Assembly (NCBI RefSeq): GCF_013753875.1
Contig: NZ_SMDS01000010.1
Location: forward strand, 372,001 to 436,000
Source of the DNA: Candidatus Pantoea persica
Lineage (GTDB): Bacteria > Pseudomonadota > Gammaproteobacteria > Enterobacterales > Enterobacteriaceae
DNA: 64,000 bases
Direction of reading: 5' to 3'
Shown here one piece after another: positions 524-14,925 of the stretch. The notes under the pieces are model-generated. The model saw only the letters and a list, made by a program, of their open reading frames with translations. It was not told the DNA's origin and made no database searches. Both the position numbers and the translations under genes were made by a program. Within the stretch, counting starts at the first letter, position 1. Each line of letters starts with the position of its first letter.

Positions 524-990
524 TTATTCCTTACCGTCGTGGGTAATCAACCAGCAATTGTGAATTTGACGGTTGCGGGCAAAATTCTGCGACAGAGTTT
601 TCTGGGTGATGTCCTGCGCCTTCAGGCCCAGCGACGCCACGCCTTCAAGATCCATTTTGAAGCCGCGCTTGTTGTTGGAGAACATAATGGTGCCGCCGGC
701 GCGCAGCAGACGCTTCATATTGCGCATCAGCATCAGGTGGTAGCGCTGCACGTCAAAATCCGCCGCCATGCGTTTGGCGTTGGAGAAGGTCGGCGGATCG
801 ATAAAGATCAGGTCGAAGGTTTCATTGCTCTCGCGCAGCCAGTTCAGGCAATCCGCCGGCATCAGGCGGTGCTGTCGGCCGCTCAGGCCGTTGAGGCGCA
901 GGTTGCGCTTCGCCCATTCCAGGTCGGTGCGCGACATATCTACCGTGGTGGTGGTGCGCGCGCCGCCAAGGCAGCGACTGCACCATTTTG
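524..990 (-). pseudogene. rlmL: RlmL (23S rRNA G2445 methyltransferase), C-terminal remnant only
   Basis: In E. coli RlmL is a two-domain methyltransferase of about 700 residues that modifies 23S rRNA. Only the last 150 or so residues of the C-terminal (RlmK) domain remain here, from [14 protein letters not shown] through the [12 protein letters not shown] motif to the end NCWLIT. Upstream of about base 970-990 the match stops and the sequence runs directly into the end of zapC. The N-terminal three quarters of rlmL and the ycbX gene normally between zapC and rlmL are missing. This is a deletion remnant with no credible start of its own. Confidence 0.85.
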
Positions 991-1039
991 AGCTGCAGCT
1001 GTATTCCAGCTGGCGGTATTGAACTGGCATAAAGGCGAT

Positions 1040-1562
1040 CAGACCGCTCAGGCGTAGCGCTTTCCGCGTGGTGCGGCAGCAGGCGGTCGTTCATCACCTT
1101 GACAACGTCGCCCAGCGCCATCGGTTTGCCCGCCAGCGTCAGCCCAGGCTGCGCCAGCAAACAGAGCGTGGCGTTGCCGCCGCTTTCCATCGCCAGCAGG
1201 CGCGCCTGTTCGCCGTTTTCCGCCAGAGTCACCTCGAGCATATCGCCCGGCTCCGGCTGTATGACGCAGGTCCAGGCGGTGAAGTGCCAGCTTTTCGGCA
1301 TCAGCGGCTTGAGAAAGCGGCTGGCGATCAGCGCGTTCAGCGTCAGCTAGGCGCTTAATCCGCTCAGTCGGCAGTGCTCTTCAAAGGTGAAATAGAGCGC
1401 GGCATCCTCGACGCTGAAGCCCGTCGCGGTAAAGGCATCCGGCGTCAGCATTTTACGGGTAAAACGAGAGCGGAAAAGCATACCTTCTGCCAGATCCAGC
1501 ATCATCCGGTCATGGTCGGCGTCAAAATACCAGCGCCATTTATCGTCAGGTTTGATTTTCAT
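1040..1562 (-). pseudogene. zapC: ZapC cell-division protein, amber-interrupted and fused to deletion joint
   Basis: ZapC is a cytoplasmic FtsZ-ring stabiliser of about 180 residues. The N-terminal part starts [14 protein letters not shown] and follows E. coli ZapC to a TAG at 1347-1349. The match continues in the same frame after the stop (LTLNALIA, then MPKSWHF and CLLAQPGLTLAGKPMALGD) to about MNDRLLPHH. No ZapC stop follows; the frame runs into the rlmL remnant. The amber codon, about four missing residues around it and the lost terminus show a dead gene. It sits downstream of pyrD as in E. coli. Confidence 0.85.
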
Positions 1563-1712
1563 GGGATGCCTTGTCATTATTCACGCTTTTCATTACGCAG
1601 ACTCAGCAAGCTCTGCAGTTGAGCAAAAAGCTGAAAATACGTATAATAAGGGAAAATATAAACGAGCCAGAGGGAGAAATAAAATCCCTAGCGCGGTTTT
1701 GTCGGAAATGTC

Positions 1713-2723
1713 TTAGAGGTAAGTCACGATATCTTTTATTAAGCCGGGCCCTTTATAAATAAAGCCGGAGTAAATCTGAATAAGCGTGGCGCCGGCGGCC
1801 ATTTTTTCGCGCGTTGCCGTTAATGAATCGATGCCACCGACGCCGATAATCGGCAGCGCGCCGTTCAGCTCCTGTGCCAACCGTTTGATCACCGCCGTGT
1901 TGCGCGACTGCACCGGACGGCCGCTCAGGCCACCGCTTTCGGTGCTGTACTTCAGGCCGCTGACCAGTGAGCGATCCAGCGTAGTATTGGTAGCGATCAC
2001 GCCGTCGATATTATGCCGTATCAGACTGTCGGCAATTTGTATTAATTCTTCTTCTGAAAGATCGGGCGCAATTTTTACCGCGACTGGCACATATTTCTGA
2101 TGCTGCTGCTCCAGCGCTTTTTGCCGGGCTTTAATGGATGCCAGCAAATCGTCCAGCGCCTCGCCATATTGCAGCGAGCGCAGCCCCGGGGTATTCGGCG
2201 AAGAGATATTTACCGCAATATAACCAGCATGGGCATAGACTTTATCCATGCAGATTAGGTAATCCTCTTTGCCATTCTCTACCGCGGTGTCTTTATTTTT
2301 GCCGATATTAATGCCTAGGATGCCGTTAAAACGCGCTTTTTTAACGTTTTCCACCAGGTGATCAACGCCGCGATTATTGAACCCCATGCGGTTGATAATG
2401 CCCTCGGCTTCCACCAGGCGGAACATGCGCGGCTTGTCGTTACCCGCCTGCGGCCGCGGCGTCACGGTGCCCACCTCGACAAAACCAAAGCCCATCGCGC
2501 CGAAGGCGTCGATGCATTCCGCATTTTTATCCAGACCGGCCGCCAGCCCCAGCGCATTGTTGAAGCGCAGCCCCATGCAGGTGACGGGACGGGAAGGAAG
2601 CTGCTGACGGATCAGTGCCTCCAGCGGCGTGCCGCTGATAAAGCGCAGCTGTTGAAAGGTCAGCTCGTGAGCGCACTCGGGATCGAGCTTAAACAGTACC
2701 GGTCGGATGATAGGATAAAGCAT
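1713..2723 (-). CDS. pyrD: Dihydroorotate dehydrogenase (quinone), class 2
   Basis: PyrD oxidises dihydroorotate to orotate at the inner membrane, passing electrons to quinone in de novo pyrimidine synthesis. The 336-residue product equals E. coli PyrD in length. Visible features are the amphipathic N-terminal segment ([16 protein letters not shown]), the FMN-site segments [16 protein letters not shown] and IGVGGIDS, and the catalytic loop [11 protein letters not shown] with the class 2 serine. An AGGAG ribosome site lies seven bases before the ATG. It is intact between a dead zapC and the prophage. Confidence 0.97.
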
Positions 2724-2778
2724 GCACTCTCCTGGATAGCGGAAGCGATAAATGATCAGGGTGCACGGGAAGAAAATG

Positions 2779-2808
2779 TGCGCCAGAATGGTAAAGGCCT
2801 CTGGCGCA
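2779..2808 (-). terminator. 9-bp perfect inverted repeat upstream of pyrD
   Basis: TGCGCCAGA at 2779-2787 pairs with TCTGGCGCA at 2800-2808 around a 12-base loop. On the minus strand it is followed by CATTTTCTT, a weak U tract. It may be a terminator of whatever once lay upstream, or part of the pyrD leader, about 55 bp before the pyrD start. Function is uncertain. Confidence 0.4.
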
Positions 2809-2942
2809 AAAGTAAATTACCGACTGTAGTGCCGCAGACAAAGTGATCCGCCAAAAACTGGATCGCTTTATCTGCAATTTCTTCATAAAAGAAAAACCAC
2901 CACATTTTGTTTACATGACGGTTTTAATACCCAATCAAAACA

Positions 2943-3550
2943 TCATGAACTTGGTTTTAACGTTTCCGGCTTAGGATAAGGCTGCACTTTAAATAATTTT
3001 GTATTGAGGCGCTTCTTCGCGCGTTTGTCCAAAAAGCGGATATATCGAAATTGCTGGAAGCGATGAACAGTTGCACGCTCTATATTGGCCCTCAGGTATT
3101 CTCCTCGCTTGCCGCCCCGCGTGCACAGCGCTCATCTGCAAAGGATTGCACCCATTGCACCTGAGGATAAAGTAATCTGATAGTTTTCAGTGCATAGCTG
3201 ATCGCTCGTGACTCTGAATTTTTAGGCATGTCATCATGCAGCCATAAGCGGTTAAGCTCCATATACTCACGATTCCCTGTACCAGAGACCACTTTTGCGC
3301 CACTGTTAGGATTCAGGGCGTATCCCCACTGCATCACGCCAACCAAAGCCCTACCGGAGAATACCCCAAGATGTAGCCAGGAATTATTAACAAACCGCCG
3401 GCTATAATGCCGACTTGTTACAATGACGCGGGCCAGCCAGCAGGCAATGGTTTCTACCCGCAATTCGTGTGAGCCGTATCCAACAATCTGGTCATTATCG
3501 AAAATGGGCTGGGGTGGTGTGAGAATGCGTGACGTATGTGCGCGCTTCAT
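2943..3550 (-). pseudogene. mom: Mom-like adenine modification protein of a Mu-like prophage, internal deletion
   Basis: Mu Mom converts adenine in phage DNA to a carbamoylmethyl (momylated) form that resists restriction. The N-terminal 140 residues match Mom-family proteins: [39 protein letters not shown] and [11 protein letters not shown]. After this the frame diverges and stops at 3092. A typical Mom C-terminus ([14 protein letters not shown], then YPKPE) lies in another frame and ends at 2943-2945. By comparison with family members the intervening core, roughly 60 residues, is missing. The start overlaps the end of com by 56 bp, as expected for the com-mom pair. Non-functional as it stands. 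Confidence 0.8.
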
Positions 3551-3707
3551 TTCCGGTCTCCGACTGGCGTTCGGAGACGCTGGTTGAGGGATTGCTCATC
3601 CTCATTTCATTAAATGCTTTGCAGCGCGGGCATTTTATCTGTATGTAAATCGCTTCTGCTTTTGCCAGCAATCGGTGACAACCGCAGCAGCGTATCTCCT
3701 GTAACAT
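3495..3707 (-). CDS. com: Com-like zinc-finger translational activator of mom
   Basis: Mu Com binds mom mRNA and opens its translation start. The ATG at 3707 was chosen because the residues after it ([18 protein letters not shown], then [11 protein letters not shown]) match Mu Com, with two CxxC pairs forming the zinc site; a GAGAAG ribosome site precedes it. A longer open frame reaches back to 3830 but has no similarity I recognise. At 70 residues it is close to Mu Com (62). It overlaps the mom start. It appears intact, although its target gene is broken. Confidence 0.8.
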
Positions 3708-3784
3708 CTTCTCATTTCCCCACTGAATCAAGAAAGCATATGTTACCTGCCAAGTAGGGAGAGGATGATTAACCCACTGCAATT

Positions 3785-3819
3785 GATCTGTTTTAGCGAT
3801 CGATAAGGCTTTATTGATC
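3785..3819 (-). promoter_or_regulatory. Cluster of three GATC (Dam) sites upstream of com-mom
   Basis: GATC occurs at 3785, 3798 and 3816, 78-112 bp upstream of the com start. In phage Mu three Dam sites upstream of the mom promoter overlap an OxyR site, so that unmethylated DNA is repressed by OxyR. Count, spacing and position here fit that switch. The OxyR and C-protein sites themselves I can only infer. Confidence 0.6.
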
Positions 3820-3959
3820 GCTAATGCCACTTATGTTTCATGTTAGCCGGCGCAAGGTCGGTAGTGCGATTTTCTGATGCGGTGTGCGATATTTGAAGCC
3901 AAAACGAGCGATAAATGGTGGGCTACTTTTGTTTCCGTCAGTGCAACGTAATTACACTT

Positions 3960-4549
3960 TTATTTTTTGTCGGGGTCGCTTTGACCTGTTCGAGCAGTTA
4001 GATTAACTGGACAATATTTGTAGATGCTAGCTAATGAGACGCCATACAGTAATGCCAGCTGCTTTCTACTATTGCCGGACTCAAGTAATTTTTTAGCCCG
4101 CTCTTGCTGTGCGGAAGATAATGAGCAAGGTCTCCCCCCGATACGTCCCCTGCTTCTCGCTGCGGCCAGACCTGCCTGAGTGCGTTCAACAATCAGTTCC
4201 CGCTCCATCTGCGCCAACGCACTCATCACATGAAAGAAAAAACGCCCTGCGGACGTAGAAGTATCAATGGAATCCGTCAAACTATGAAAATGAATACCTT
4301 CATCTTCCAGTTTGGAGATTAAAGTAATCAAATGTTTAATGCTACGACCCAGCCTGTCGAGCTTCCAGACCACCAGAGTATCCCCCGATTTCAGGCAGTT
4401 TAACGCGCGTTTTAATCCGGGTCTCTGGTCTGTTTTTCCACTGATTTTATCCTCAAAAATCTGTTCACAATTTGCGCGAATCAACGATTTTTGCTGTAAA
4501 TCGGTGTTTTGGTCATTTTTGACACCCTCATATAGCCTATTTTTGCCAT
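3960..4549 (-). pseudogene. gin: Gin-like serine DNA invertase with a 1-base frameshift in an A run
   Basis: Gin inverts the Mu G segment using a catalytic serine. The proper start is ATG at 4549, preceded by AGGGG, giving MAKIGYMRVS with the catalytic Ser10. The next bases are a run of five A (complement of 4516-4520). Six would be needed to read KNDQNTDLQQKSL and continue into the rest of the protein. From CEQIFEDKISGKTDQRPG onward the frame is open to 3960 and includes VVWKLDRLGRS, MERELIVERT and a C-terminal helix-turn-helix (GNSRKQLALLYGVSLASIYK). Repaired length would be 196 residues (Mu Gin 193). One base separates it from an intact gene. Confidence 0.85.
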
Positions 4550-4627
4550 TTTAGCCCCTTAACCTTCCTCTAAAAGACTTGTTATGCCTGGTTTTGGTTA
4601 AAATTTTAGCTAAATTCTGAATTCAAT

Positions 4628-4648
4628 AAAACCTTGGTTTAACAGAAA
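4628..4648 (+). repeat. gix: Left gix-like inversion site
   Basis: A 21-bp sequence with core AACCTTGGTTTAACAGAA, closely resembling the Mu gix site. It is repeated without mismatch in inverted orientation at 6203-6223. It lies 79 bp upstream of the gin start and at the exact joint where the alternative tail fibre C-terminus begins. Confidence 0.85.
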
Positions 4649-5108
4649 TGGTAGTGCCGGTAGGTGTTCCACTACCCTGGCCCGCCGAAAATCCGCCTGC
4701 CGGGTGGCTTAAATGCAACGGTGATACCTTCGATAAAGTGGCCTGTCCTCAGCTGGCAGCGGTCTATCCTTCAGGCAGAACACCGGATTTACGTGGTGAG
4801 TTTATTCGGGGCTGGGATGATGGTCGTGGAATCAATCCAGGAAGGGCGTTGCTGTCTCTGGAGTATGGGGCATTGCAAAGCCATAAGCATGGCTATCGTG
4901 ACCGATATTATGTCGAGCATGGCAGGCCTCTGGGCCGGGCAGAGCACAAAGAAGCGGCCCCTGAAAATTATAACAACAAGGTCGGCTCGGGAGCCACAGA
5001 CGGTGACAACGACTATTTTCTGTACATCGACAGCACAACCTCACCCTCCGGCAGTAGCGAAACCCGTCCCGTAACGTCGCCTTTAATTACATCGTGAGGG
5101 CAGCATAA
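4630..5108 (+). pseudogene. Silent alternative tail-fibre C-terminus (Sv'), one-base frameshift near end
   Basis: Open reading from the gix-like site (NLGLTE then MVVPVGVPLPWP) through a phage collar-type fibre domain: PPAGWLKCNGDTFD, TPDLRGEFIRGWDDGRG, LQSHKHGY and SGSSETRP. It has no promoter or start of its own; it would be expressed only when inverted onto S. At 5068-5070 a run of three C is one base short, causing a TGA at 5094. In the shifted frame the family's usual end, RNVAFNYIVRAA, follows and stops at 5106-5108. The reading frame is therefore intact apart from one base. Confidence 0.75.
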
Positions 5109-5117
5109 TGCTGTGCC

Positions 5118-5555
5118 TCATGCATCTTTATCAGACTGTTGAGGCCACTCCATATCACCATCCGGAGCGGTGCTGATATCCACGCGGTTAAGCAGCACAC
5201 GGTATTTCTTCCATGCCAGCAGCGCGGCTTTTTCGGCGTCCGTTGCCATGTCAGTGTCTGCGGCGTCCTGAAGCGGAGCAATCGCGACGGTAGCAATCTG
5301 CATCAGCGAGGATTTTTGCTTCTCTGCTGCTGACATCAGATCTTCTTTTGTTGGTGGTGGTCTATCTCCCCATGCTGGAAAACCATCCGTACCAACTATA
5401 CGCTGCTTTCCTTTGGGAGGCAGATTGCCTGCAAATTCCAGCCAGACATCATCACCGACTTCAATGGTATCTTTGGGAAAGCTGCCTGCCCTGATATAGT
5501 CCTGTTTTAATTCTTCAGGGAAAAAAGCATTTTCACCCGGACTGTAGTAATACAT
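5118..5555 (-). CDS. Tail fibre assembly protein (gpU / Tfa-like), now read as the tail of S
   Basis: Tfa-type chaperones help tail fibres fold and may remain at the tip. The segment beginning MYYYSPGENAFFPEELKQDY is a standard Tfa start, and its last 80 residues (EKQKSSLMQIA ... DAADTDMATDAEKAALLAWKKYRVLLNRVD) are the typical helical Caudo-TAP end. Length from the inferred ATG at 5555 is 145 residues. It is in frame with upstream S, whose own stop has been bypassed (see S entry). It could still start independently, although I see no strong ribosome site. Confidence 0.75.
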   Translation of the reverse strand: MYYYSPGENAFFPEELKQDYIRAGSFPKDTIEVGDDVWLEFAGNLPPKGKQRIVGTDGFPAWGDRPPPTKEDLMSAAEKQKSSLMQIATVAIAPLQDAADTDMATDAEKAALLAWKKYRVLLNRVDISTAPDGDMEWPQQSDKDA

Positions 5556-6848
5556 GATTAATATCCTATTGCTATCCAGGTTGTAGTCGGTTGTAACCTT
5601 GATATGCGCCCTATCGACTAATCCGGCAGAGTGTGAACATAGATCTTCACCCATCCCTATAGCTTCAGCAACCCAGCCCAGCGCCCACAGGCCTTCGTTT
5701 GGAAACGGAAGGGGCAGCGGAAGAATTTTTCTGTCAAAGCTTTCGCTATCCGTTTTACCCCACTGAATAATCAATCCCGTGTCCCCGCATTTCCACCATC
5801 CATTGACCCCGCGCTTCGCCGTATTCGGTTGGCCGCAGGCCCCTTTGGGCTGGAAGGTCTTTTTCAGGTAAGCGTCCAGCCACTGATTTCCCCATTGACT
5901 GCCGTAGATATTGCCGTCAGAGGCTATCCTTGCGGCTCCGGCATACACGGAAGACGGAGAACGAAAACCGCCATCTTTATGAAAAACGTACTCACCGCCG
6001 CCGTCATTGCCGTTGTTTAGCCGAACGCCATCACCGCCCTTGTCTTTGTAGAGCCACATGCGAACGCTGCCATCCTGATTATGAATACCCAGATGCTTGC
6101 GGTTATCCCCCTTCAGCGAAATTTGGGTGCCCTGTGAAATAATGTCGCCATTGACCGTTCCACCAGTTCGTTGATCGAGTGCATTTTTTGCACAATCTAT
6201 CGTTTCTGTTAAACCAAGGTTTTTCACAAATTGATTTTTGTTCGAGATGTCCGCCCCATTTTCATTTTTCGCCAGTTTCTGGCTCAGAAGCTGCGTCACG
6301 CTTTCGGCAAATTTCGGGTTATTGCTGATGGCCTGCGCCAGCTTGTTCAGCGTATCTAAATCAGACGGCGCTTTGTCAACAACCGCATTCACCCGCTCAT
6401 TGACCGCTTTAGGCGTCGCGGCGGTAGTTTCGTCCGCGCTGCGAGGGGAACTGTTTAACTGCACTATCCCTTTGCGGTGAAGCGTCGCCTCCTGAATGCC
6501 GTCCTGGGTCGCCAGCTTGCCCAGGCCCAGATGCGTACGGGCCTTTTCCTGTGCCCCTTTGCCCGCCGCCGCAATCTCCGCCAATGCCTGGGTTTTCAGC
6601 AGCGCCTCCTGGCCGATAATGGCCCGGATAGCCAGCGTCAGCTGGTTTAACTTGCCCTTATCCGGGCGGATGCCGGCGGCGTCCAGCAAGGCCAGTTGTT
6701 CGGCTTGCTGGATATTGAACCAGTCCTCCCCCGGCCAGCTGATGCCCTTGTTGCCGTCGCCCTCGGTAAACCATAACGGCGTGGTGCTCTGGGTTTCTTT
6801 CAGCGGCGGCATGGTGGCAATGCCGCTGTTGTTATCTAAAAAATACAT
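5118..6848 (-). CDS. Tail fibre S fused in frame to assembly protein U
   Basis: Mu S is the host-range tail fibre. Residues 1-208 are the constant half, starting MYFLDNNSGIATMPP and including the GLGKLATQDGIQEATLHRKGIVQLNS-type prophage fibre motif. The variable half begins after the gix-like site (KNLGLTET). Near DYNLDSNRILI the frame has shifted: in the alternative frame the DNA reads WIAIGY then TAA at 5558-5560, the usual end of such fibres, three bases before the U ATG. A small indel just upstream has removed this stop and fused S to U, giving 576 residues. Whether a fused product would assemble is unknown. Confidence 0.75.
   Translation of the reverse strand: MYFLDNNSGIATMPPLKETQSTTPLWFTEGDGNKGISWPGEDWFNIQQAEQLALLDAAGIRPDKGKLNQLTLAIRAIIGQEALLKTQALAEIAAAGKGAQEKARTHLGLGKLATQDGIQEATLHRKGIVQLNSSPRSADETTAATPKAVNERVNAVVDKAPSDLDTLNKLAQAISNNPKFAESVTQLLSQKLAKNENGADISNKNQFVKNLGLTETIDCAKNALDQRTGGTVNGDIISQGTQISLKGDNRKHLGIHNQDGSVRMWLYKDKGGDGVRLNNGNDGGGEYVFHKDGGFRSPSSVYAGAARIASDGNIYGSQWGNQWLDAYLKKTFQPKGACGQPNTAKRGVNGWWKCGDTGLIIQWGKTDSESFDRKILPLPLPFPNEGLWALGWVAEAIGMGEDLCSHSAGLVDRAHIKVTTDYNLDSNRILIMYYYSPGENAFFPEELKQDYIRAGSFPKDTIEVGDDVWLEFAGNLPPKGKQRIVGTDGFPAWGDRPPPTKEDLMSAAEKQKSSLMQIATVAIAPLQDAADTDMATDAEKAALLAWKKYRVLLNRVDISTAPDGDMEWPQQSDKDA
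6203..6223 (-). repeat. gix: Right gix-like inversion site
   Basis: Reverse complement of the 21-bp site at 4628-4648 with no mismatch. It lies inside the S coding frame at KNLGLTE, as gix does in Mu S. Confidence 0.85.
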
Positions 6849-7390
6849 TAGCCTTTCTCCTTTTTGTCGGCATACACATAGCGAAAGTCCTGATGCGCCG
6901 GCTTATAGCGGTTTAACAGGCATTCGAGTATCCCGGAGTAATAAATCCGCAGCGGCGTGGTGATGGGGTCAAGCACATGCAGCGGGCGATAGTCCACGTG
7001 GGTCTCAATCGTCACCATCGTGACCCACTGATTGTCCGGCAAGGTGCTCAGGCTCACCGTAAAGCCATAAGAGCGCGCCAGTTCAATGTAAAACTGCCGG
7101 TTGAGGCTCGGTTTCATGCGCAGCTTGTTGGCCGCATAGCGCTGGCGCTCATCGATGCCGGCATCCTTACCGATATCACAGTCCGGCAGCCCTAAAAAAC
7201 GCTCCCAGTCAGCCAGCAACCGTGTGGCGGTCAGCGGAAAGCGCTCGGCCAGCAATTGCCCGGCGCGTTCGGTGACGCGCGACGTACTGCGTGCCAGGCC
7301 GCCGGCCAGCAGCGTATCCGGCGCTTTGTTCCAGGCCAGGCCGTCAGGCAGCAGTTGCAGCAGCGCGCGCTGATGTGCCTTTAAAGCCAT
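6848..7390 (-). CDS. Mu gp48-like baseplate/tail protein (DUF2313 / YmfQ family)
   Basis: In Mu-like phages this gene sits between the baseplate wedge protein gp47 and tail fibre S and is part of the baseplate. The 180-residue product begins MALKAHQRALLQLLPDGLAWN, which matches the typical family opening (LLPxGxAW). It also has FLGLPDCDIGKDAGIDERQRYAANKL. It overlaps the gp47 end by 10 bp and its stop overlaps the S start. No damage is seen. It belongs to the prophage tail operon read on the minus strand. Confidence 0.8.
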   Translation of the reverse strand: MALKAHQRALLQLLPDGLAWNKAPDTLLAGGLARSTSRVTERAGQLLAERFPLTATRLLADWERFLGLPDCDIGKDAGIDERQRYAANKLRMKPSLNRQFYIELARSYGFTVSLSTLPDNQWVTMVTIETHVDYRPLHVLDPITTPLRIYYSGILECLLNRYKPAHQDFRYVYADKKEKG

Positions 7391-8461
7391 GTGATATCTC
7401 CCATCACCAGTAGCTCGGTTTTTCCGCTACTGACCGGCGTCAGTGGACTTTTCAGGGCGTAATCCTCCAGCCCGCCTATCCCCGACAGCACGCGCCAGAA
7501 TGCCGAGGGCAACAGGGTTTCGCCCGGCTTAGCCGCCGTGTAAAACAGTTGCCTGAGCGCCTCGCGGATACGGGCTTGGTTATCCGGGGGTATTGGGGGC
7601 GATACGCAGCGTGATATCGACCTTCTTTGCCCCCGGCGCAAACACCGTCACTGTCGGCCCCTCCGGTTGGCCGACCCACTCGCCGGTGGCCGGGTCCAGG
7701 TGGCGAGCGAGATAGTCGGTCACCCGCGCAATATCGGCCGGGCCAGGGAAGATATCCGGGTGATGGTCCATCACGAAGGTCACGCCCACCGTGCCCGCCC
7801 CGTTCCAGGTGGGCAGACACCAGCTGCGGGTGACGCCCGGGACCTCGCGCGCCCAGCGCTCGTAATCCCAGCGTGTGCCGCCGCCTGGGGGAAACTGTAC
7901 CCGATACAGCAGGCGCGACAGCAATTCCTCCACGCGCTCGCGGTCAGCGCCGCCCCGGATCCCGGGCGCATCGGTCAGCGCCTGCGGGGCCACCCCGGCG
8001 ACCGGGGTCACAAAACCGAGTGCCTGTCCCGCACCGCAATCCCCCGCCAGCCCCGGCTGGTCGGCCTCGACGTTGACCGTTAAGGTTCCCGCCTTGCCCT
8101 TGGCGGCGTCTGTCAGGCGGTAAAGCGCGCCGTCGGCCCGTTGCAAACGCGCCCCAACCGGCACACTGGCGGCATCATACAGCGACAGCCTGACCGGGCC
8201 GCTGGCCCGGGCGGCCTGCTTGCGCACCACACCCCAGAAAGCACAGTGTTTGAGCAGCTCGCTCTCGTCAGCGTCGCCCGGAATGATTTGCCGGGCTATC
8301 CAGCCCAGGTGCTCATGCTCCAGCGCCGACAGCCCGGCCTGCGCCATCGCCATGGCCCCCAGCAGACTGTCCTGGGCCGGCAGCGCGCCCGGCAGGCGTT
8401 GCGCCACATCCTGCTGCGTCTGGCTGATAAGCTCGCCGAGCGTGGTTATCTGATACGGCAT
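7381..8461 (-). pseudogene. Mu gp47-like baseplate wedge protein (baseplate J family), one-base frameshift
   Basis: Baseplate J-like proteins form the wedge arms of contractile tails. The frame from MPYQITTLGELISQTQQD runs 293 residues (GTRWDYERWAREVPGVTRSW, VTVFAPGAKKVDITLRIAPN). It then stops at 7580 after a run of five C. With one C fewer it would continue NTPDNQARIREALRQLFY to the stop at 7381, giving about 360 residues, the length of Mu gp47. It overlaps gp48 and abuts gp46. The final 65 residues are lost, so it is probably inactive. Confidence 0.8.
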
Positions 8462-8899
8462 TTACATTCCCTCCAAACGGGCTTTAAAGGTAAACGGGCG
8501 CGCACTGCCGTCCTTGAGCGTCAGGCGCACGATCAGGCGCAGCCAGCCCGGCAGCGGCGCACTCGCCTGGCAATGCAACTGGCTGATCATCCCGGCGTCC
8601 AGCAGGCCACGCAGCGCCTCATCGGCGTAGGCTTCTGCCCGCGCCAATACCGCAGGCAGCGCCTTTTCCCGTGACAGCAGCCACAGCCGCGAGCCAACCG
8701 GGCGGTCGCGATAACTGTCCGCCCACCATCCGCGCCGGTCATGGCCGCCATCCGGCAAACGGTCGGAGACCTCAGCGCGCCGGTCGGTAAACAGGCACAG
8801 CAGCACGGTGGTCGTCAGGCTGTCGTCGGCGAGTAAATCCGCGCCGGCCTGTACCAGCACCCCCTCGCCATTCATCCAGCGCAGCGCCGCGTCACTCAT
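8462..8899 (-). CDS. Mu gp46-like baseplate protein
   Basis: Small baseplate subunit of the gp46/GPW-gp25-like class, between spike gp45 and wedge gp47 in Mu. The product is 145 residues, nearly identical in size to Mu gp46 (146). It has the family features of an N-terminal MSDAALRWMNGEGVL, a DRRAEVSDRLPDGGHDRRGWWADSY region and a C-terminal RLTLKDGSARPFTFKARLEG strand pair. Starts overlap with gp45 by 8 bp. No frameshift or stop is seen. Confidence 0.8.
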   Translation of the reverse strand: MSDAALRWMNGEGVLVQAGADLLADDSLTTTVLLCLFTDRRAEVSDRLPDGGHDRRGWWADSYRDRPVGSRLWLLSREKALPAVLARAEAYADEALRGLLDAGMISQLHCQASAPLPGWLRLIVRLTLKDGSARPFTFKARLEGM

Positions 8900-9500
8900 T
8901 GCGGCCCCCGATCAGACTGCCCTGGCCATTTTCCTGATGGCGGTGAGTACTGTGTTTGACGCCACCGATAACGGCTTCCGGTGCGGCAAAGGTGCCCTGG
9001 GACTCCGCGTCCCCGGCAATCGTCATGCTCTGTTTCACCGTCAGGTTTTTCTCAATCACCACATCATCAGTAAAACGCGCGGTCGGGGTGTTAAACACCG
9101 CCTCCTGCTCGGCGACCACTTCCAGTGTTTTACAGGTGATGATGCAGCGGCCGTCCCGGGTCAGACGCAGGCGATGCCCCTCATAGTGATACAGGCCGCT
9201 ATCCCCGGCGGGCAGCCCGGTGGGCCGATAACGCCGGTCTTCTACCACTAGCACGGTCGCCTGGTCACGACTGCCGCCCAGGCAGGCAAACACCACCTCG
9301 GCCCCCGGCAACGGCACGCTGATATGCCCGTATTGCTGCGGGCGCTCGACCTCATCGAAGGTTTCGCCGTCCAGCGCCGTCAACTGGACGTTTTGCGCTT
9401 TCAGGCCGTCATTCACCCCGGTCAGGATACCCCGCCCGAACAACAGGCGGATCCCGCGCATCACCGGGGCAAGCAGGCGTTGCAGTGCGATATTACTCAT
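8892..9500 (-). CDS. Mu gp45-like tail spike / baseplate assembly protein V
   Basis: The trimeric central spike pierces the outer membrane. The start MSNIALQRLL at 9500 was chosen because it overlaps the gpP stop (ATGAGTAA) and gives 202 residues, near Mu gp45 (197). Longer upstream frame lies inside gpP. A predicted OB-fold region (AEVVFACLGGSRDQATVLVVED) is followed by repetitive beta-helical strands. The C-terminus has HSTHRH, in the place of the HxH iron-binding motif of Mu gp45 and P2 gpV. It looks intact. Confidence 0.8.
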   Translation of the reverse strand: MSNIALQRLLAPVMRGIRLLFGRGILTGVNDGLKAQNVQLTALDGETFDEVERPQQYGHISVPLPGAEVVFACLGGSRDQATVLVVEDRRYRPTGLPAGDSGLYHYEGHRLRLTRDGRCIITCKTLEVVAEQEAVFNTPTARFTDDVVIEKNLTVKQSMTIAGDAESQGTFAAPEAVIGGVKHSTHRHQENGQGSLIGGRNE

Positions 9501-10608
9501 CGAGTTTATTCCCCTGGTTAAGCCAGGCCCGCACCAGACCATCGACGCCGCCGTCAGTACCGCCCGCCTGACGCTCCGCCTCCGCCGGCACAATAAACGC
9601 CTCGCGCGGGGCCAGTGTTAACGTTGTGCGTTCCCCGTTGTCCGCATCGAGATCAAACTGCACCTGGCTAATTAAAAGGTCACGACTGACCATCGACAGA
9701 CGCGGCGCAATGACGCGGGTCAGCCGGTTGGTCTGCCACAGTTCGCCGCTTTCGCGCCGCCAGCCCGTGACCACGGCGGTAAAGCGCTCTGACTGGGCTA
9801 GTGCCCGGCGGCTTTCCCGCAGCGCGCGCGCCCGTGCGGTGGCGGGGGTCAGTTTGCTGTCAGCCAGAATGACTTTGGGGCGGTAACGAGCAATCGCGGG
9901 ATCGTCGCTTTCTCCCCTGGGGGCAGCGCGCAGCGCGTTGGTGTTGGCGTCGCCGGCGTGCCCACCGCCGCCGCCGTGGCCTTTAACCCGATACTGACTG
10001 TGGCGGTCGCGCCAGTCCTCGGTGTACTCGGCGGACAACAGATTTTCACCCAGACGCAGGGTGTCAGTGGGGGTGTTCGCCGCCTGGGTAAACACCAGAT
10101 CGCCGTCGGCATCACTGGTCACCAAAACGCCCCGATGACGCGCCGCCCGGCTCAGCACATCCGCCACGCTTTCCGACAGTTCAAGGGTAAAGGAGGTAAA
10201 GGGTTTGGCGGCCTCGGGGTCAGACACCGCCCAGCGCACCGCGATGCCAAAAGGTTTGCACAGGTCTTGCGCAATCTGTTGCAGGGTGCGTTGACGCCAT
10301 TGACCGCCCGGGTAGACTGCCGAACAGTCCACCAGATCGCCGGTTTTATCCCGGCCCTTTATCGTGACCTGTGCCGAGTCGGCCCCCATCTTGTGCGATA
10401 CGCTGTCGAGGTAGCCGGTGATGACCGGTTGCCCGTCAAGGGTCAGCGCGAGCGTTCCGCCGGCGCGCAGGCTGTCGGGCAACGCCTGGCCGGGCATCAT
10501 GATCCCGAGGGTAAAATCCCCGGCCAGACGCGCCAGCCCCCGGGTAATAATGACCGACAGCCAGTGGGTGAAAATCCGGTTGTCGATGCGCAACGCCACC
10601 TCAGCCAC
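9493..10608 (-). CDS. Mu gpP-like baseplate hub protein (gp27/late control D type)
   Basis: The hub joins the tail tube to the spike. A GTG start at 10608 is inferred because it overlaps the gpN stop (GGTGGCTGA) and begins VAEVALRIDNRIFTHW, like Mu gpP. This gives 371 residues, close to the family norm. Recognisable parts are FTLGIMMPG, VTIKGRDKTGDLVDCSA and the C-terminal LISQVQFDLDADNGERTTLTLAPREAF. The region upstream of the GTG in the open frame is inside gpN. No inactivating change is seen. Confidence 0.8.
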   Translation of the reverse strand: MAEVALRIDNRIFTHWLSVIITRGLARLAGDFTLGIMMPGQALPDSLRAGGTLALTLDGQPVITGYLDSVSHKMGADSAQVTIKGRDKTGDLVDCSAVYPGGQWRQRTLQQIAQDLCKPFGIAVRWAVSDPEAAKPFTSFTLELSESVADVLSRAARHRGVLVTSDADGDLVFTQAANTPTDTLRLGENLLSAEYTEDWRDRHSQYRVKGHGGGGGHAGDANTNALRAAPRGESDDPAIARYRPKVILADSKLTPATARARALRESRRALAQSERFTAVVTGWRRESGELWQTNRLTRVIAPRLSMVSRDLLISQVQFDLDADNGERTTLTLAPREAFIVPAEAERQAGGTDGGVDGLVRAWLNQGNKLDE

Positions 10609-11960
10609 CGGGCACCTCCACGCGCTCGCCCCCCGGCACAAACAGCGGATGACGCAGCCGGTTGCGACGAATAAAGCGCGCCGTGTCACGCGCATCCCCG
10701 CTGATGCGGTACAGGGTCACCAGCGCCGGCTCGGTGGTTGTCACCGCGGCCTGGATCAGGCCGGGTAACGCCACGCCGCGGTGGGATAAATCCGCCACAA
10801 AGGCGCGGCTTAACGCCCGAACCTGCAAGGCCAGGCTCTGATAGCCCAGCGCCGAGGTGGTCAGGGCACACGCATCCAGGCGGCGCGCGACCTGCTGGCT
10901 GACGCGCACCACATCCGGTGTACTTTCCAGCCAGACGCTGCCGCTGCAGCTGTCACTGAGCGGGCGCGGGGCGGGGCGGGCGAGGCCGCGCGTGGCAACA
11001 CCTGTGCCGGTGCGTTTTGGCTGACCGCCGCCAGACTGGCGGTGAGCAGGGACGACAACATCTGTACCTGCACCACCGCCACCGCCAGGCGCAGCGTATT
11101 TTGCAGCAACTGCACCGTGGCGCGGGTGGCCGGTTGCAGACCCTGCCTATCGCGCTGGCGGTCCTGACGGACCAGCGCGCTGTCCAGCCGGTCGGCCAGC
11201 TGGACTATCTGGTGCTGGAGTGCACCGGGCTGCGGGGAGACCGGCGCGCGTGCCCGGTTTTTTATCTGCTCAGGTTGGGGGTAAGCCCGCAGGCGCTGTA
11301 TGCCCTGAAAAATCCCCTTGAAGGCCAGCGCCAGGCGGTCGGGAGTGGTGATAAGCCCCTGGATATTGCCGCGCAGGGCGGTGAACGAGGCGATAAAGCT
11401 CTGCATATCGGCCAGCAGCCCCAGACCATTGAGGGCGCTTTCCAGCATGTTGGCTTTCTCGTTGACGCACGCCATCAACACCTGTGCGTCATGCAGCGAG
11501 GTCTGCCAGCCGTCAGCCAGGGTGGAAAACAGTGAGGCCAGCGTGCCGTCGCCCTGGCGATTGACCACCCCGGCGGTATCCTGCGCTACCGTAGGGGCGG
11601 TCTCATCGGCCACCGGTACCACCGTGACGGTAAACTCCACCAGACGCTGGTTATCGACGCTGTAGCGGCTTTCAAAGTGTTCAACCAGCACCGACAGCGT
11701 ACCCCAGTCCGGGTGCAACAGCTTGCCCGGTCCCGGCGCATTCAGCGCCTGCGTCAGCCGTACCCGTTGTGCCTGCGCATCATCGCCGGTCAGTGACAGG
11801 GTGAAGGTGTGCTCAGGCAGTTTTTCCCTAAATCGTCCGCCCCGCCATGTTCACGCAGCGGATATTCCCGCCGCACCACCCGGCGACCGCCGCGACTGCG
11901 CTGCTCTTTGTAAACCCAGAAAGGCACGCCGCGAAAGCGGCCCTGACCGGTATTTTTCAT
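10601..11960 (-). pseudogene. Mu gpN-like DNA circularisation / tail protein, at least two frameshifts
   Basis: Mu gpN circularises injected DNA and is also a tail component. The start ATG at 11960 gives MKNTGQGRFRGVPFWV, then EQRSRGGRRVVRREYPLR, the usual opening. The frame breaks near 11825 in a GGGAAAAAC stretch; HTFTLSLTGDD and later residues continue in a second frame. This breaks again in a G-rich stretch near 10980, after which VVRVSQQVARRLDACALT leads to the normal end (HPLFVPGGERVEV) at 10601. At about 450 residues the full frame would match family size. It is not expressed as one protein. Confidence 0.8.
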
Positions 11961-11969
11961 CTGCGCACC

Positions 11970-14074
11970 TCAATAAATACGGTAGTTGTCGCCGTTATAC
12001 ACATCCAGAGTTAACCCAAAGGCGTTACTGTCGGTGACGGCGCTGTTTTGCAGCACCAGTCCCGGGGCCAGCGCAATACGCATGTCCGCCTGGGCTTTCA
12101 CGGACGGCTGCACCGTCTGTTGCTCGTCCTTCCTGTCCCACCGGGCGTAGATATCGCCCAACCAGCCGCCGAGTTTTTCGCCGAGCACACTACCGAGCAT
12201 CGAGCCAGCCACCGCCCCTATCGGGCCACCGATGGCGCCGACGAGTCCGCCCGCTGTCGCACCGGTAGCCGAACCTAGCGCACCGCCTTTATCCTCGGCG
12301 CTGGCATTCTTATCCAGCAGCGTCGGGGCCAGCGACAACGCCGTCAGCGCCGGCCCGCCCAGGCGCATTGCGCCGCGACCGAGCGCCCCGGCAGACCGTC
12401 CCAGCCAGCCGGTGAAACCGGTGAGCTGCGCCGTTACCCCACCCAGCAGGCCGCATGCCCGCTGTCCCACACCGGACAGCCAGCGTCCGGCCGTGCTCAC
12501 GCCCGGTATCCGGCTTAACCGTGCGCCGGTGCGATTGACCATGCCGCCAAAGAAGCCTGAGACGGCGGAGGCCGCCCGCCCCAGGCGGGAGCGCGGCACC
12601 GGGGCCGCTGGACGGCCAGGGCGCATGCGGGAGCCTTTACGGCGGGTGCGACCGTTGCCATCGACATCAGTCTCACTGCCACCCCCGACGCCGCCCGCCG
12701 GCCAGTTGGTGACAAACACGCTCACCGGCGCGCCCAGACCGCCACCCATCGCAAACGGTGCGGGACCAGGCAAAGCCGCCGGGGCATTTTTGCCGCGCCC
12801 CCGCCACCACCGATAAGCCCGCCACGGGTAACGCACCGGTGCACTGGCCAGCCCCCAGGCGGGACGGGCTATCGCCATGCCGACACGGGCCAGTTTCGAG
12901 GCGACATAAATCGCCAGAATGGCCCTGGCCGTATTGGCGGCGTATTTGCCGATACTGTCGATAGTCTCGCCGTAGCCAGCCAAGCGCCACGCCATCAGCT
13001 CGGTGTTGACCCGGTTAAGGCCATTTTTAAACAGCGTGACGCCACGGCGGGCGCTGTCGAATACCCCGTTAAAACGACTGGCCAGCCTGTCGGCCCATTG
13101 GTCCTGCAAACCGCTTTCCTGCCCCTCACCGGCAAAATCCAGAAAGTCTTTTAACTCGGTTTTAAGCCGTTTAAATGGCCCTTGATTCATCACCTTGACG
13201 GCGAACTGCTGCCAGACATCGCCCAGTTGGGAAGTGAGTCCCGTCCAGGAGTTCATGGCGTCTTTCTGCGCCCCTTTAGCCTGCTCGCGCAGCGTCTGGA
13301 ACAACAATTCAATGGATTTTGGCCCAAGTAACCCTTTTTCACCCTGTGTGGTCAGTTCGTTACGGCTTTTGCCGAGCTTTTCCGCCAGTACGCTATAGAC
13401 ATCAATGCCGTAGCCGGTGAGCAGGCTCGCGTCCTGAGCCTGGATGCTCTTGCGCGAATACATCTGTTTAAGCTGAAGGGAAGCGCCCTGGGCTTCCGGC
13501 AACGTCCAGCCGTGCCGTGCACCCTGGTCTTCCAGCATCGTAATAAAGTGGCGCGCTTCCTCACGACTCATGCCAAACCCCCGACTGGAGGCGTATTCCT
13601 GCACCACCCCTTGCAATCCCCAGGTGGTGTCCCTGGCATTCTGTATCGCCCATTTCAGGTCGGCGTCGGTCTGGGCTTTATCGTGATGGTTCAGTGAGTT
13701 CAGGCGAATGGTGTAGTTTTCCCGCCGGGTCGATAAAGGCTTTTTTTCAGGCCATACAGCGCCGCGCCCCCGGCCAGCAGCCCGTAAAGGCGCGCTACGC
13801 CGCCATAGGCCGCTTTGGCGCGCGTCTCCAGATGGTCAAAACCGGATGACACCGACGCCAGCCCCAGGCGCAGACCGCTAAAGGTGCGCTGGCCCTGATG
13901 GCCCAGCCGGTCAAGCTGACTCCCCAGGCTATTCGCCCGAAGACCAAGACCGTGCAGGGATGCGCCGCCTTGCCGCCCCATGCCGACCAGACTTTGACCA
14001 AACAGCCGCGCCTGCCGGAGCAGGTTGCCCAGCAGGTCAACAATCACTGACGCTTTTATCTGCTTTCCGGCCAT
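11970..14074 (-). pseudogene. Tape measure protein (Mu gp42-like), frameshifted
   Basis: The tape measure sets tail length. The first frame, MAGKQIKASVIVDLLGNL, runs 124 residues and ends with GGAALYGLKKSL in a run of seven A at about 13741-13747. The continuation (NYTIRLNSLNHHDKAQTDADLKWA) is in another frame and stays open 548+ residues to 11970. This second part has a tape-measure N-domain (QGVVQEYASSRGFGMSREEA), Arg/Pro-rich linkers and a Gly/Ala-rich hydrophobic tract (GGLVGAIGGPIGAVAGSMLGS). The combined length is about 700 residues. The indel breaks it near the N-terminus. Confidence 0.8.
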
Positions 14075-14077
14075 CGT

Positions 14078-14651
14078 TTACTCACGCTGTAATAAGTGGG
14101 TGGCTTGCTGGCAGTGCCGGTAAAGCCGGATTAACGGCAGGGAAAGCGCCCAGTCCATGCCCGACTTGGTGGATGTGGCGAGCATCAGCGCCGCTTCCTC
14201 AATGTTTTCCCGACACTGCATCCAGTCGCCCCGAATCAGCCGCCAGCTGGCCGGCCAGCACGCTGCCGCCCAGACGCTGGGCGATGATAAGGCGTTCAAT
14301 ATAGCGCGCCGACAGACTTTTCAGTTGCAGCAGCGACAACGGGCCGTTGAGGTTGCCCAGCCAGGCAACCTGCCGGCGCAGCAGCTCAAATTCGACCATC
14401 GCCGGCGAACGCACTAATTCCGAGCCGTTAGCCGTCTGCACCACCCGCTCTGCGGCCAGCTCAGCATCAATAATGTCCTTGCCGGTTAATGGCCGCAGGG
14501 TAACGTCCGTGTGGCGCTGTTCGTCGTCACCGCTGCCGGTGACCAGACCCAGTTGCCCGCGCGCTAGTTCGTCGGCGACGCTGGTGATATCCGGCGACAC
14601 TCCTTCAACCTCGTGGGCCGCCGTCGCCAGGGTTTCCATGCTATCGGTCAT
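14078..14651 (-). CDS. Tail assembly chaperones: short form and programmed-frameshift long form (Mu gp41-like)
   Basis: Contractile and siphophage tails use two chaperones made from one start by frameshifting; the long form carries the tape measure. The short frame (MTDSMETLATAAHEVEG) is 150 residues and stops at 14199. The second frame, in the -2/+1 register, overlaps it and runs to 14078 (GDWMQCRENIEEA ... LLQRE), directly before the tape measure start. The only plausible switch is CGGGGCGA at 14226-14233. Mu is reported to use a -2 shift at this gene. The two-frame layout is therefore probably the normal, functional one and not damage. Confidence 0.75.
14226..14233 (-). promoter_or_regulatory. 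Putative -2 programmed ribosomal frameshift site
   Basis: Minus-strand CGGGGCGA, read TCG GGG CGA in the zero frame and CGG GGC GAC in the new frame. From memory it matches the Mu C-GGG-GCG-A slippery site. It lies 27 bases upstream of the zero-frame stop. Confidence 0.6.
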
Positions 14652-14660
14652 ACTCGCTCC

Positions 14661-14925
14661 TTACGCCACACGCTGGCTGCGAATGGCGGTAAATTTGGCG
14701 GAGATTTCTCCCGCGTCCGTCAGGGACTCTTCCCCGTTGCTCCAGGCGTTGGTCATCATAGTGCGTTGCGCCGGAATCGGCTTCAAACTCCAGCGTCACA
14801 TCGTACCAGCCGTTGATGACATCCACGCTCAGATCACCCCGTGCCGGAAATTTGCATTCCAGCGTGGCGGCGCGAGGTGTCGATTTGTAGCCGTAGACGC
14901 GCGCCGGTCACTTCCATCAATCAGA
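14661..14925 (-). pseudogene. Tail tube protein (Mu gpM-like), C-terminal remnant
   Basis: The tail tube is the inner cylinder of the tail. Only about the last 85 residues can be traced: VYGYKSTPRAATLECKFPARGDLS and VINGWYDVTLEFEADSGA in one frame, then MMTNAWSNGEESLTDAGEISAKFTAIRSQRVA in another, ending in TAA at 14661-14663. There is an indel near 14760 and another near 14905. The N-terminus is missing because prophage similarity ends abruptly at about 14.93 kb, where base composition falls to AT-rich. It lies directly upstream of the chaperone gene, as in Mu. Confidence 0.7.

What the first reader, a model, noticed from the sequence alone, without database searches (positions are those of the whole stretch)
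4628..6223. Mu G-type invertible segment with perfect gix-like sites and two alternative fibre tips
Two 21-bp sites match exactly in inverted orientation. Both the active (minus) and silent (plus) fibre ends enter the site in the same frame (NLGLTE), so inversion would give a correctly fused second fibre. The layout, with gin next to it, is that of the Mu host-range switch, here preserved in a decaying genome.
Basis: partly seen in the sequence, partly recalled or inferred. Interest (0 to 1): 0.75.

Follow-up and report, generated by a model that had tools for sequence, protein, structure and literature searches.

The report
Locked relic of a fibre-switch cassette
A piece of a Mu-like virus stranded in a bacterial genome still carries the DNA switch that once let it swap the tips of its tail fibres; related genomes show this switch in the opposite position, but in this copy the gene for the enzyme that flips it is broken, so it is most likely a fossil.

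Summary
Two identical 21-bp sites lie in inverted orientation (4628-4648, 6203-6223), are the only copies in the 2.85-Mb assembly, and have the 26-bp TT…AAACC-AA-GGTTT…AA form of invertase sites. Both fibre tips enter the site as NLGLTE in the same frame.

Relatives show that such sites act as junctions. In a provirus with an intact invertase ORF (L235) the flanks are collinear with the window while tip A, the Tfa end and tip B are inverted. In two contigs of one IMG genome number a segment sharing 99.4% identity has the same end joined to the fibre stem in one and to gin in the other. G041 contigs end at both site edges.

In the window the switch is most likely dead: gin is split so that its start is out of frame, and the only other resolvase-family match in the assembly is a truncated gene. 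The far ends of both tips, gp47 and a gp43-position gene are also out of frame.

It differs from Mu's G segment in size (1.58 against 3.06 kb), one Tfa gene with no U', and an AA core. A decayed member of a known kind.

The parts
3875..3930 (-). right terminus of the element (begins TGATGC...)
   Evidence: The sequence from 3875 on is shared by 8 copies compared, with different sequence before it in each; 4 copies in this genome
3960..4549 (-). gin, serine DNA invertase gene, broken: the start MAKIGYMRVS is in another frame from the rest (ORF 3960-4484)
   Evidence: one-frame relatives
4622..4647 (-). left (gin-side) 26-bp recombination site
4648..5097 (+). tip B (S'), silent, tail-collar domain; its conserved far end is encoded in another frame
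   Evidence: PF07484 3.4e-12; frames; intact relatives
5118..5558 (-). tail fibre assembly gene (Tfa), here in one frame with the fibre
   Evidence: PF02413 6.8e-39; separate ORF in L222
5559..6221 (-). tip A, joined to the stem; last few residues out of frame, stop lost, reads on into Tfa
6204..6229 (+). right (stem-side) 26-bp recombination site
6222..6848 (-). constant stem of fibre S (residues 1-209)
   Evidence: phrog_1833; first part 66% identical to Mu S DNA; 95-96% identical protein in L223 and L224
6848..7390 (-). gp48, baseplate
   Evidence: PF10076 3.6e-25
7381..8461 (-). gp47, baseplate J, split between two frames
   Evidence: PF04865; single 359-aa ORF in L223 and L224
8462..14651 (-). 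rest of the tail module: gp46, gp45, gp44, a gene at the gp43 position split over three frames, tape measure, gp41; phage-like sequence ends between here and asnS (15564)

Best explanation
This is the tail-fibre phase-variation cassette of a Mu-like phage. A Gin/Hin-family serine invertase used to cut at two inverted 26-bp sites and turn the 1.58-kb segment between them, so that one fibre stem (S residues 1-209) was completed either by tip A with its Tfa gene or by a collar-type tip B. In this genome the prophage is reduced to part of its tail genes and the invertase frame is broken near its start, so the segment is most likely locked with tip A on the stem. Structure, sites and broken frames are shown. 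Inversion at such sites is shown by comparison in relatives, not observed directly. The change of host range and the present lock are inferred.
For: Perfect site pair, unique in the assembly, with the 26-bp site form found also at Mu's G segment; both tips in frame with the site; invertase gene and Mu-like tail genes around it. L235: gin and stem collinear with the window, tip A, Tfa end and tip B all on the opposite strand. L222/L225: 2,541 bp at 99.4% with the tip-A end on the stem in one contig and on gin in the other. L226, L009 and L019 also carry tip A away from the stem. G041 contigs end at both site edges. Broken gin and only one other, truncated, PF00239 match in the assembly.
Against: No reads, so neither inversion nor the lock is seen directly. 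dN/dS of the broken gin piece (0.09-0.14) is like that between intact genes (0.10), so the break is very recent or could be an assembly error. Another Mu-like portal gene in the genome (contig C10) has an open frame, so a second, less decayed prophage exists and this assembly is not complete (98%). A mobile invertase arriving later could act in trans.
Confidence: 0.85

Rival explanations
1. The switch still works here: the frame changes are sequencing or assembly errors, or some Gin is made despite them, so both fibre forms still occur.
For: gin piece under the same constraint as intact genes (dN/dS 0.09-0.14 against 0.10); no in-frame stops in the true-strand tail-gene matches to L223/L224, only frame changes; sites perfect.
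Against: Six frame changes in about 8.8 kb of prophage (gin, S, S', gp47, gp43 position twice), while 16 host ORFs looked at cover whole Pfam domains in one frame (chosen for length, so biased). Dispensable host genes are broken too (zapC split over two ORFs, partial comEC-type and ABC genes), as in real decay.
Confidence: 0.1
2. An ordinary mosaic fibre locus with a chance or leftover repeat; the tips were exchanged by homologous recombination, not inversion.
For: Phage fibre genes are mosaic; L083 and L084 have other tips on a similar stem.
Against: 21-bp perfect repeat far beyond shuffles; strand reversal limited to the stretch between the sites in L235, and one near-identical segment joined by its tip-A end to two different partners.
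Confidence: 0.02
3. A tailocin-like tail kept by the bacterium with a switchable tip.
For: What is left at this locus is tail genes plus the fibre switch.
Against: The only sheath-family match in the assembly is a fragment with stops on another contig; gp47 and the gp43-position gene are split.
Confidence: 0.02

Closest known systems
G segment of phage Mu (gin, gix, S-U / U'-S')
   Same: Fibre stem outside the segment, two alternative tips inside, inverted sites, invertase beside it, gp48/gp47 tail order; com and mom genes close by
   Different: About 1.58 kb against 3.06 kb; one Tfa gene and no U'; AA core instead of GA; the two 26-bp sites differ in their outer bases whereas Mu's are identical; gin broken
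Cassettes of insect-symbiont proviruses: L235/L143 (IMG 2512564001), L009 (Arsenophonus nasoniae), L222/L225 (IMG 2773858062), L019 (Candidatus Symbiopectobacterium)
   Same: Same kinds of tip A, tip B, Tfa, stem, gin and sites
   Different: gin open in one frame in L235, L009, L222 (L019's gin is truncated); segment in the other orientation or joined to other partners; P2-like tail beside the stem in L235 and L222
P segment of E. coli cryptic prophage e14 (pinE)
   Same: Fibre genes with tfa in a 1.8-kb invertible segment in a defective prophage (PMC12529663, PMC4272514; passages read)
   Different: Its invertase works; here gin is split. Sites were not compared base by base
Phage SfMu G segment
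   Same: A Mu-like G segment that may no longer invert (PMC4406740, passages read)
   Different: There the suspected cause is a base change in one site; here the sites are perfect and the invertase gene is broken

Membership tests
Gin/Hin/Cin/Pin-type invertible fibre segment | Two inverted 26-bp sites of the form TT....AAACC(A/G)AGGTTT....AA with the same core | tested here: met
   (Mu sites compared in the same call; form otherwise recalled)
Gin/Hin/Cin/Pin-type invertible fibre segment | Two alternative gene ends that enter the site in one frame with the constant part | tested here: met
Gin/Hin/Cin/Pin-type invertible fibre segment | Adjacent intact serine invertase gene | tested here: not met
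   gene present but split; open in one frame in relatives
Gin/Hin/Cin/Pin-type invertible fibre segment | Both orientations occur | tested here: inconclusive
   Found by comparison among relatives; not testable in this genome without reads
Gin/Hin/Cin/Pin-type invertible fibre segment | Fis-bound enhancer near or in the invertase gene | not tested
   no enhancer search was made; role known from PMC3798978 (passages)
Mu G segment in the strict sense | Two tip-plus-chaperone pairs, S-U and S'-U' | tested here: not met
   one Tfa gene only
Mu G segment in the strict sense | GA core of the gix sites | tested here: not met
   AA core
Tailocin | Sheath and baseplate genes intact without head genes | tested here: not met
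   only a sheath fragment with stops in the assembly; gp47 split

The most novel reading that the evidence does not exclude
The cassette is not dead: enough Gin is made despite the frame change for occasional inversion, and the 576-aa fibre that runs into its own assembly protein is a working self-chaperoning fibre kept by a symbiont that has lost the rest of this phage, a fibre switch taken over by the bacterium.
Probability: 0.05. Interest if true: 0.6.

Novelty: new member of a known kind. Interest (0 to 1): 0.3.

Why it matters
It adds a compact, one-chaperone version of the Mu/e14-type fibre switch to a phage pool with relatives in Arsenophonus and Symbiopectobacterium loci and in proteins named Plautia stali symbiont and Sodalis. 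The same cassette is seen in both orientations among relatives whose invertase is open, beside a copy in a reduced genome where the invertase frame is lost while sites and codons are almost untouched. That makes it a usable example of how phase variation is switched off during genome reduction. It does not change the picture of how such switches work.

Tried and rejected
Chance repeat: rejected. Natural fibre-Tfa fusion typical of the family: of 46 loci with a hit among the 47, one (L021, 28% identity) had a single frame spanning tip and Tfa, and the closer relative L222 keeps them separate, so the fusion here is read as a lost stop. I first thought that the tip-A frame changed some 45 residues before its end, because many alignments to distant tips stop near residue 384; L222 agrees with the window frame almost to the end, so I dropped that. 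Sodalis as host genus, my first guess, was dropped: the best named pyrD matches are Pantoea at 93% (the best 120 of 7,620 are listed). Tailocin: rejected. Relation of the terminus at 3875 to Mu's right end: alignment score 28, reached by 1 of 200 shuffles, so some support; for 2740-3860 the score 23 equals the shuffle mean, no support. A claim that the genome has lost every Mu head gene was dropped: the portal family has one match with an open frame on contig C10. The Mu transposase family search found nothing, but none of its controls rang either, so it shows nothing. Sequencing error as cause of the frame changes is not excluded. Literature: 3 papers; 1; 19; 5; 21; 0; 44; 16; passages read in PMC3091646, PMC3914690, PMC3798978, PMC4406740, PMC12529663 and PMC4272514 only; the others were seen in listings. 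These searches found no paper on this cassette; none was read whole.

Full report
CHECK. The two repeats are real. Arms 4628-4648 and 6203-6223 are exact over 21 bp and 93% complementary over 27 bp. One hundred dinucleotide-preserving shuffles of 2501-14900 gave no perfect inverted repeat longer than 16 bp. In the whole assembly, 2,852,448 bases in 23 contigs, the 21-mer occurs once per strand and the reversed control never. As 26-bp sites they read TTCTGTTAAACC-AA-GGTTTTATTGAA on the gin side and TTCTGTTAAACC-AA-GGTTTTTCACAA on the stem side: identical in the half facing the segment, different in the last six bases of the outer half. Mu's two sites are identical to each other over 26 bp, TTCCTGTAAACC-GA-GGTTTTGGATAA. 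The core here is AA, not GA. Both tips read NLGLTE across the site in one frame with the stem.

ANATOMY. From left to right: the element's right terminus at 3875; the invertase gene on the minus strand (3960-4549); the left site; tip B on the plus strand (collar domain PF07484); then on the minus strand one Tfa gene (PF02413), tip A (PF20744, PF12604, part of PF21882), the right site, the constant S stem (phrog_1833; its first part 66% identical to Mu S DNA), gp48, gp47, gp46, gp45, gp44, a gene at the gp43 position (position by recall; no Pfam match), the tape measure and gp41. Phage-like sequence ends between gp41 (to 14651) and host asnS (15564); pyrD is on the other side. Mu's G segment is about 3.06 kb and has two Tfa genes, U and U'. 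This one is 1,582 bp from site centre to site centre and has one.

RELATIVES SHOW INVERSION. I scanned the window and the 277 loci held at that point for stem, tip A, Tfa, tip B, gin and sites. Many of these loci overlap or repeat one another, so I give no tally. Among relatives with tip A at 65% identity or more, L009 (Arsenophonus nasoniae), L142/L234 (gin identical to L009, probably the same organism), L143/L235 (one contig) and L019 (Candidatus Symbiopectobacterium) carry tip A on the gin side; L226 carries tip B on the stem and tip A at the far end; L222 carries tip-A-type tips at both ends, one on the stem; L225 has a gin gene at both ends. L235 is the clearest case. Aligned with the window, gin with the left site (89%) and stem with the right site (83%) are collinear, while tip A (88%), the Tfa end (86%) and tip B (74%) all lie on the opposite strand. 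This is what inversion at the two sites predicts. L235's gin (196 aa) and the ORF running through stem and tip B (402 aa) are open. L222 and L225 bear the same IMG genome number and share 2,541 bp at 99.4%; the tip-A end of that segment is joined to the stem in L222 and to gin in L225. L225, with gin at both ends, could be a recombination product between two prophages or an assembly chimera of two orientations; either way the join is at a site. Cassettes of this kind also sit on P2-like tails (the tail type is by recall).

CONTIG ENDS. In the same-genus genome G041, contig C8 stops beside the left site, next to an open gin ORF, and contig C3 stops beside the right site. No segment belonging to these ends was found in that assembly; the matches found are to another copy on C6. 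Viral contigs L223 and L224, 95.1% and 95.7% identical to the window over 6.6 kb of tail DNA, stop inside the right site. Mixed orientations explain this simply, but several prophages with different tips could also do it; L223's last bases already differ from the window's tip side.

THE WINDOW COPY IS BROKEN. gin: the start MAKIGYMRVS, which holds the serine that is catalytic in this family (recalled), is in a different frame from the rest, whereas G041, L009, L235 and L222 have it in one frame. The only other PF00239 match in the assembly is a truncated gene with a stop. Tip B: the conserved end NYIVRAA is encoded but out of frame (in frame in L092, L084 and L235). Tip A: the end IAIGY is encoded but out of frame, so the ORF runs on into Tfa. 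gp47 is split once and the gp43-position gene twice relative to L223 and L224. dN/dS of the gin piece against four open relatives is 0.09-0.14, as between two open genes (0.10); for tip A it is 0.23-0.33, for Tfa 0.30 and for the stem 0.05. So the loss is very recent, or partly an assembly matter. Sixteen host ORFs that I looked at cover whole Pfam domains in one frame, but I chose them for length. zapC is split between two ORFs, and a comEC-type and an ABC-transporter gene are partial, so the decay is not confined to the prophage.

MECHANISM. Shown: sites, frames, gene content, breaks. Shown by comparison: strand reversal bounded by the sites in relatives. Inferred from the Gin/Hin/Cin/Pin family: a serine invertase acting with Fis at an enhancer turns the segment and swaps the fibre tip, which changes adsorption (PMC3798978, PMC4406740, PMC12529663; passages read). 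I made no enhancer search. Inferred for this genome: no working invertase, hence a lock with tip A on the stem. An invertase from another element could act in trans, since PinE is reported to invert the Mu G segment (PMC12529663, passage read), but no other full-length one was found in this 98%-complete assembly. At least one other Mu-like prophage part exists in the genome, with an open portal gene on contig C10 about 5 kb from another copy of the right terminus, so I do not claim that the genome is free of Mu-like phage genes.

HOST. The best named pyrD matches are Pantoea at 93%. With a 2.85-Mb genome among 61 same-genus genomes of 1.4-6.6 Mb, this is probably a reduced-genome insect symbiont related to Pantoea; this is an inference. 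Among the best fibre-protein matches are ones named Arsenophonus, Plautia stali symbiont and Sodalis (best 120 of 917 listed).

VERDICT. A real, decayed member of a known kind of system. Its variant features are one Tfa gene, an AA core and a short segment; one annotated Tfa between two such sites is also seen in an E. coli plasmid record.

Noticed in passing
window 3092-3830: com and mom genes (PF10122, PF25680) lie just outside the right terminus at 3875, with three GATC sites upstream of com; the same junction is found in L225, whose com-mom part is 98.6-99.4% identical to the window while the gin part is 89%. Either com-mom belongs to an older neighbouring prophage or the end was exchanged.
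   Followed up: partly
G000 C2:315560, C10:206822, C11:94886 and the window: Four copies of the element's right terminus with parts of gin in this one genome; C10 also holds a Mu-type portal gene with an open frame.
   Followed up: partly
L083 5998 and L084 6961: Copies in two different genomes (G000 and G044) show the same junction between the C-terminal part of gin and the end of the tip, with the left site and gin start missing, as if a switch-less form had spread.
   Followed up: partly
L225 1067-4172: One segment flanked by a gin gene on both sides, each next to a right terminus with its own flank.
   Followed up: partly
window 825-1577: zapC is split: ZapC_N in ORF 1347-1577 and ZapC_C in ORF 822-1301.
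   Followed up: partly
window 4648-6202: The segment has 52% G+C against 60% for the prophage remnant 3875-14900.
   Followed up: no
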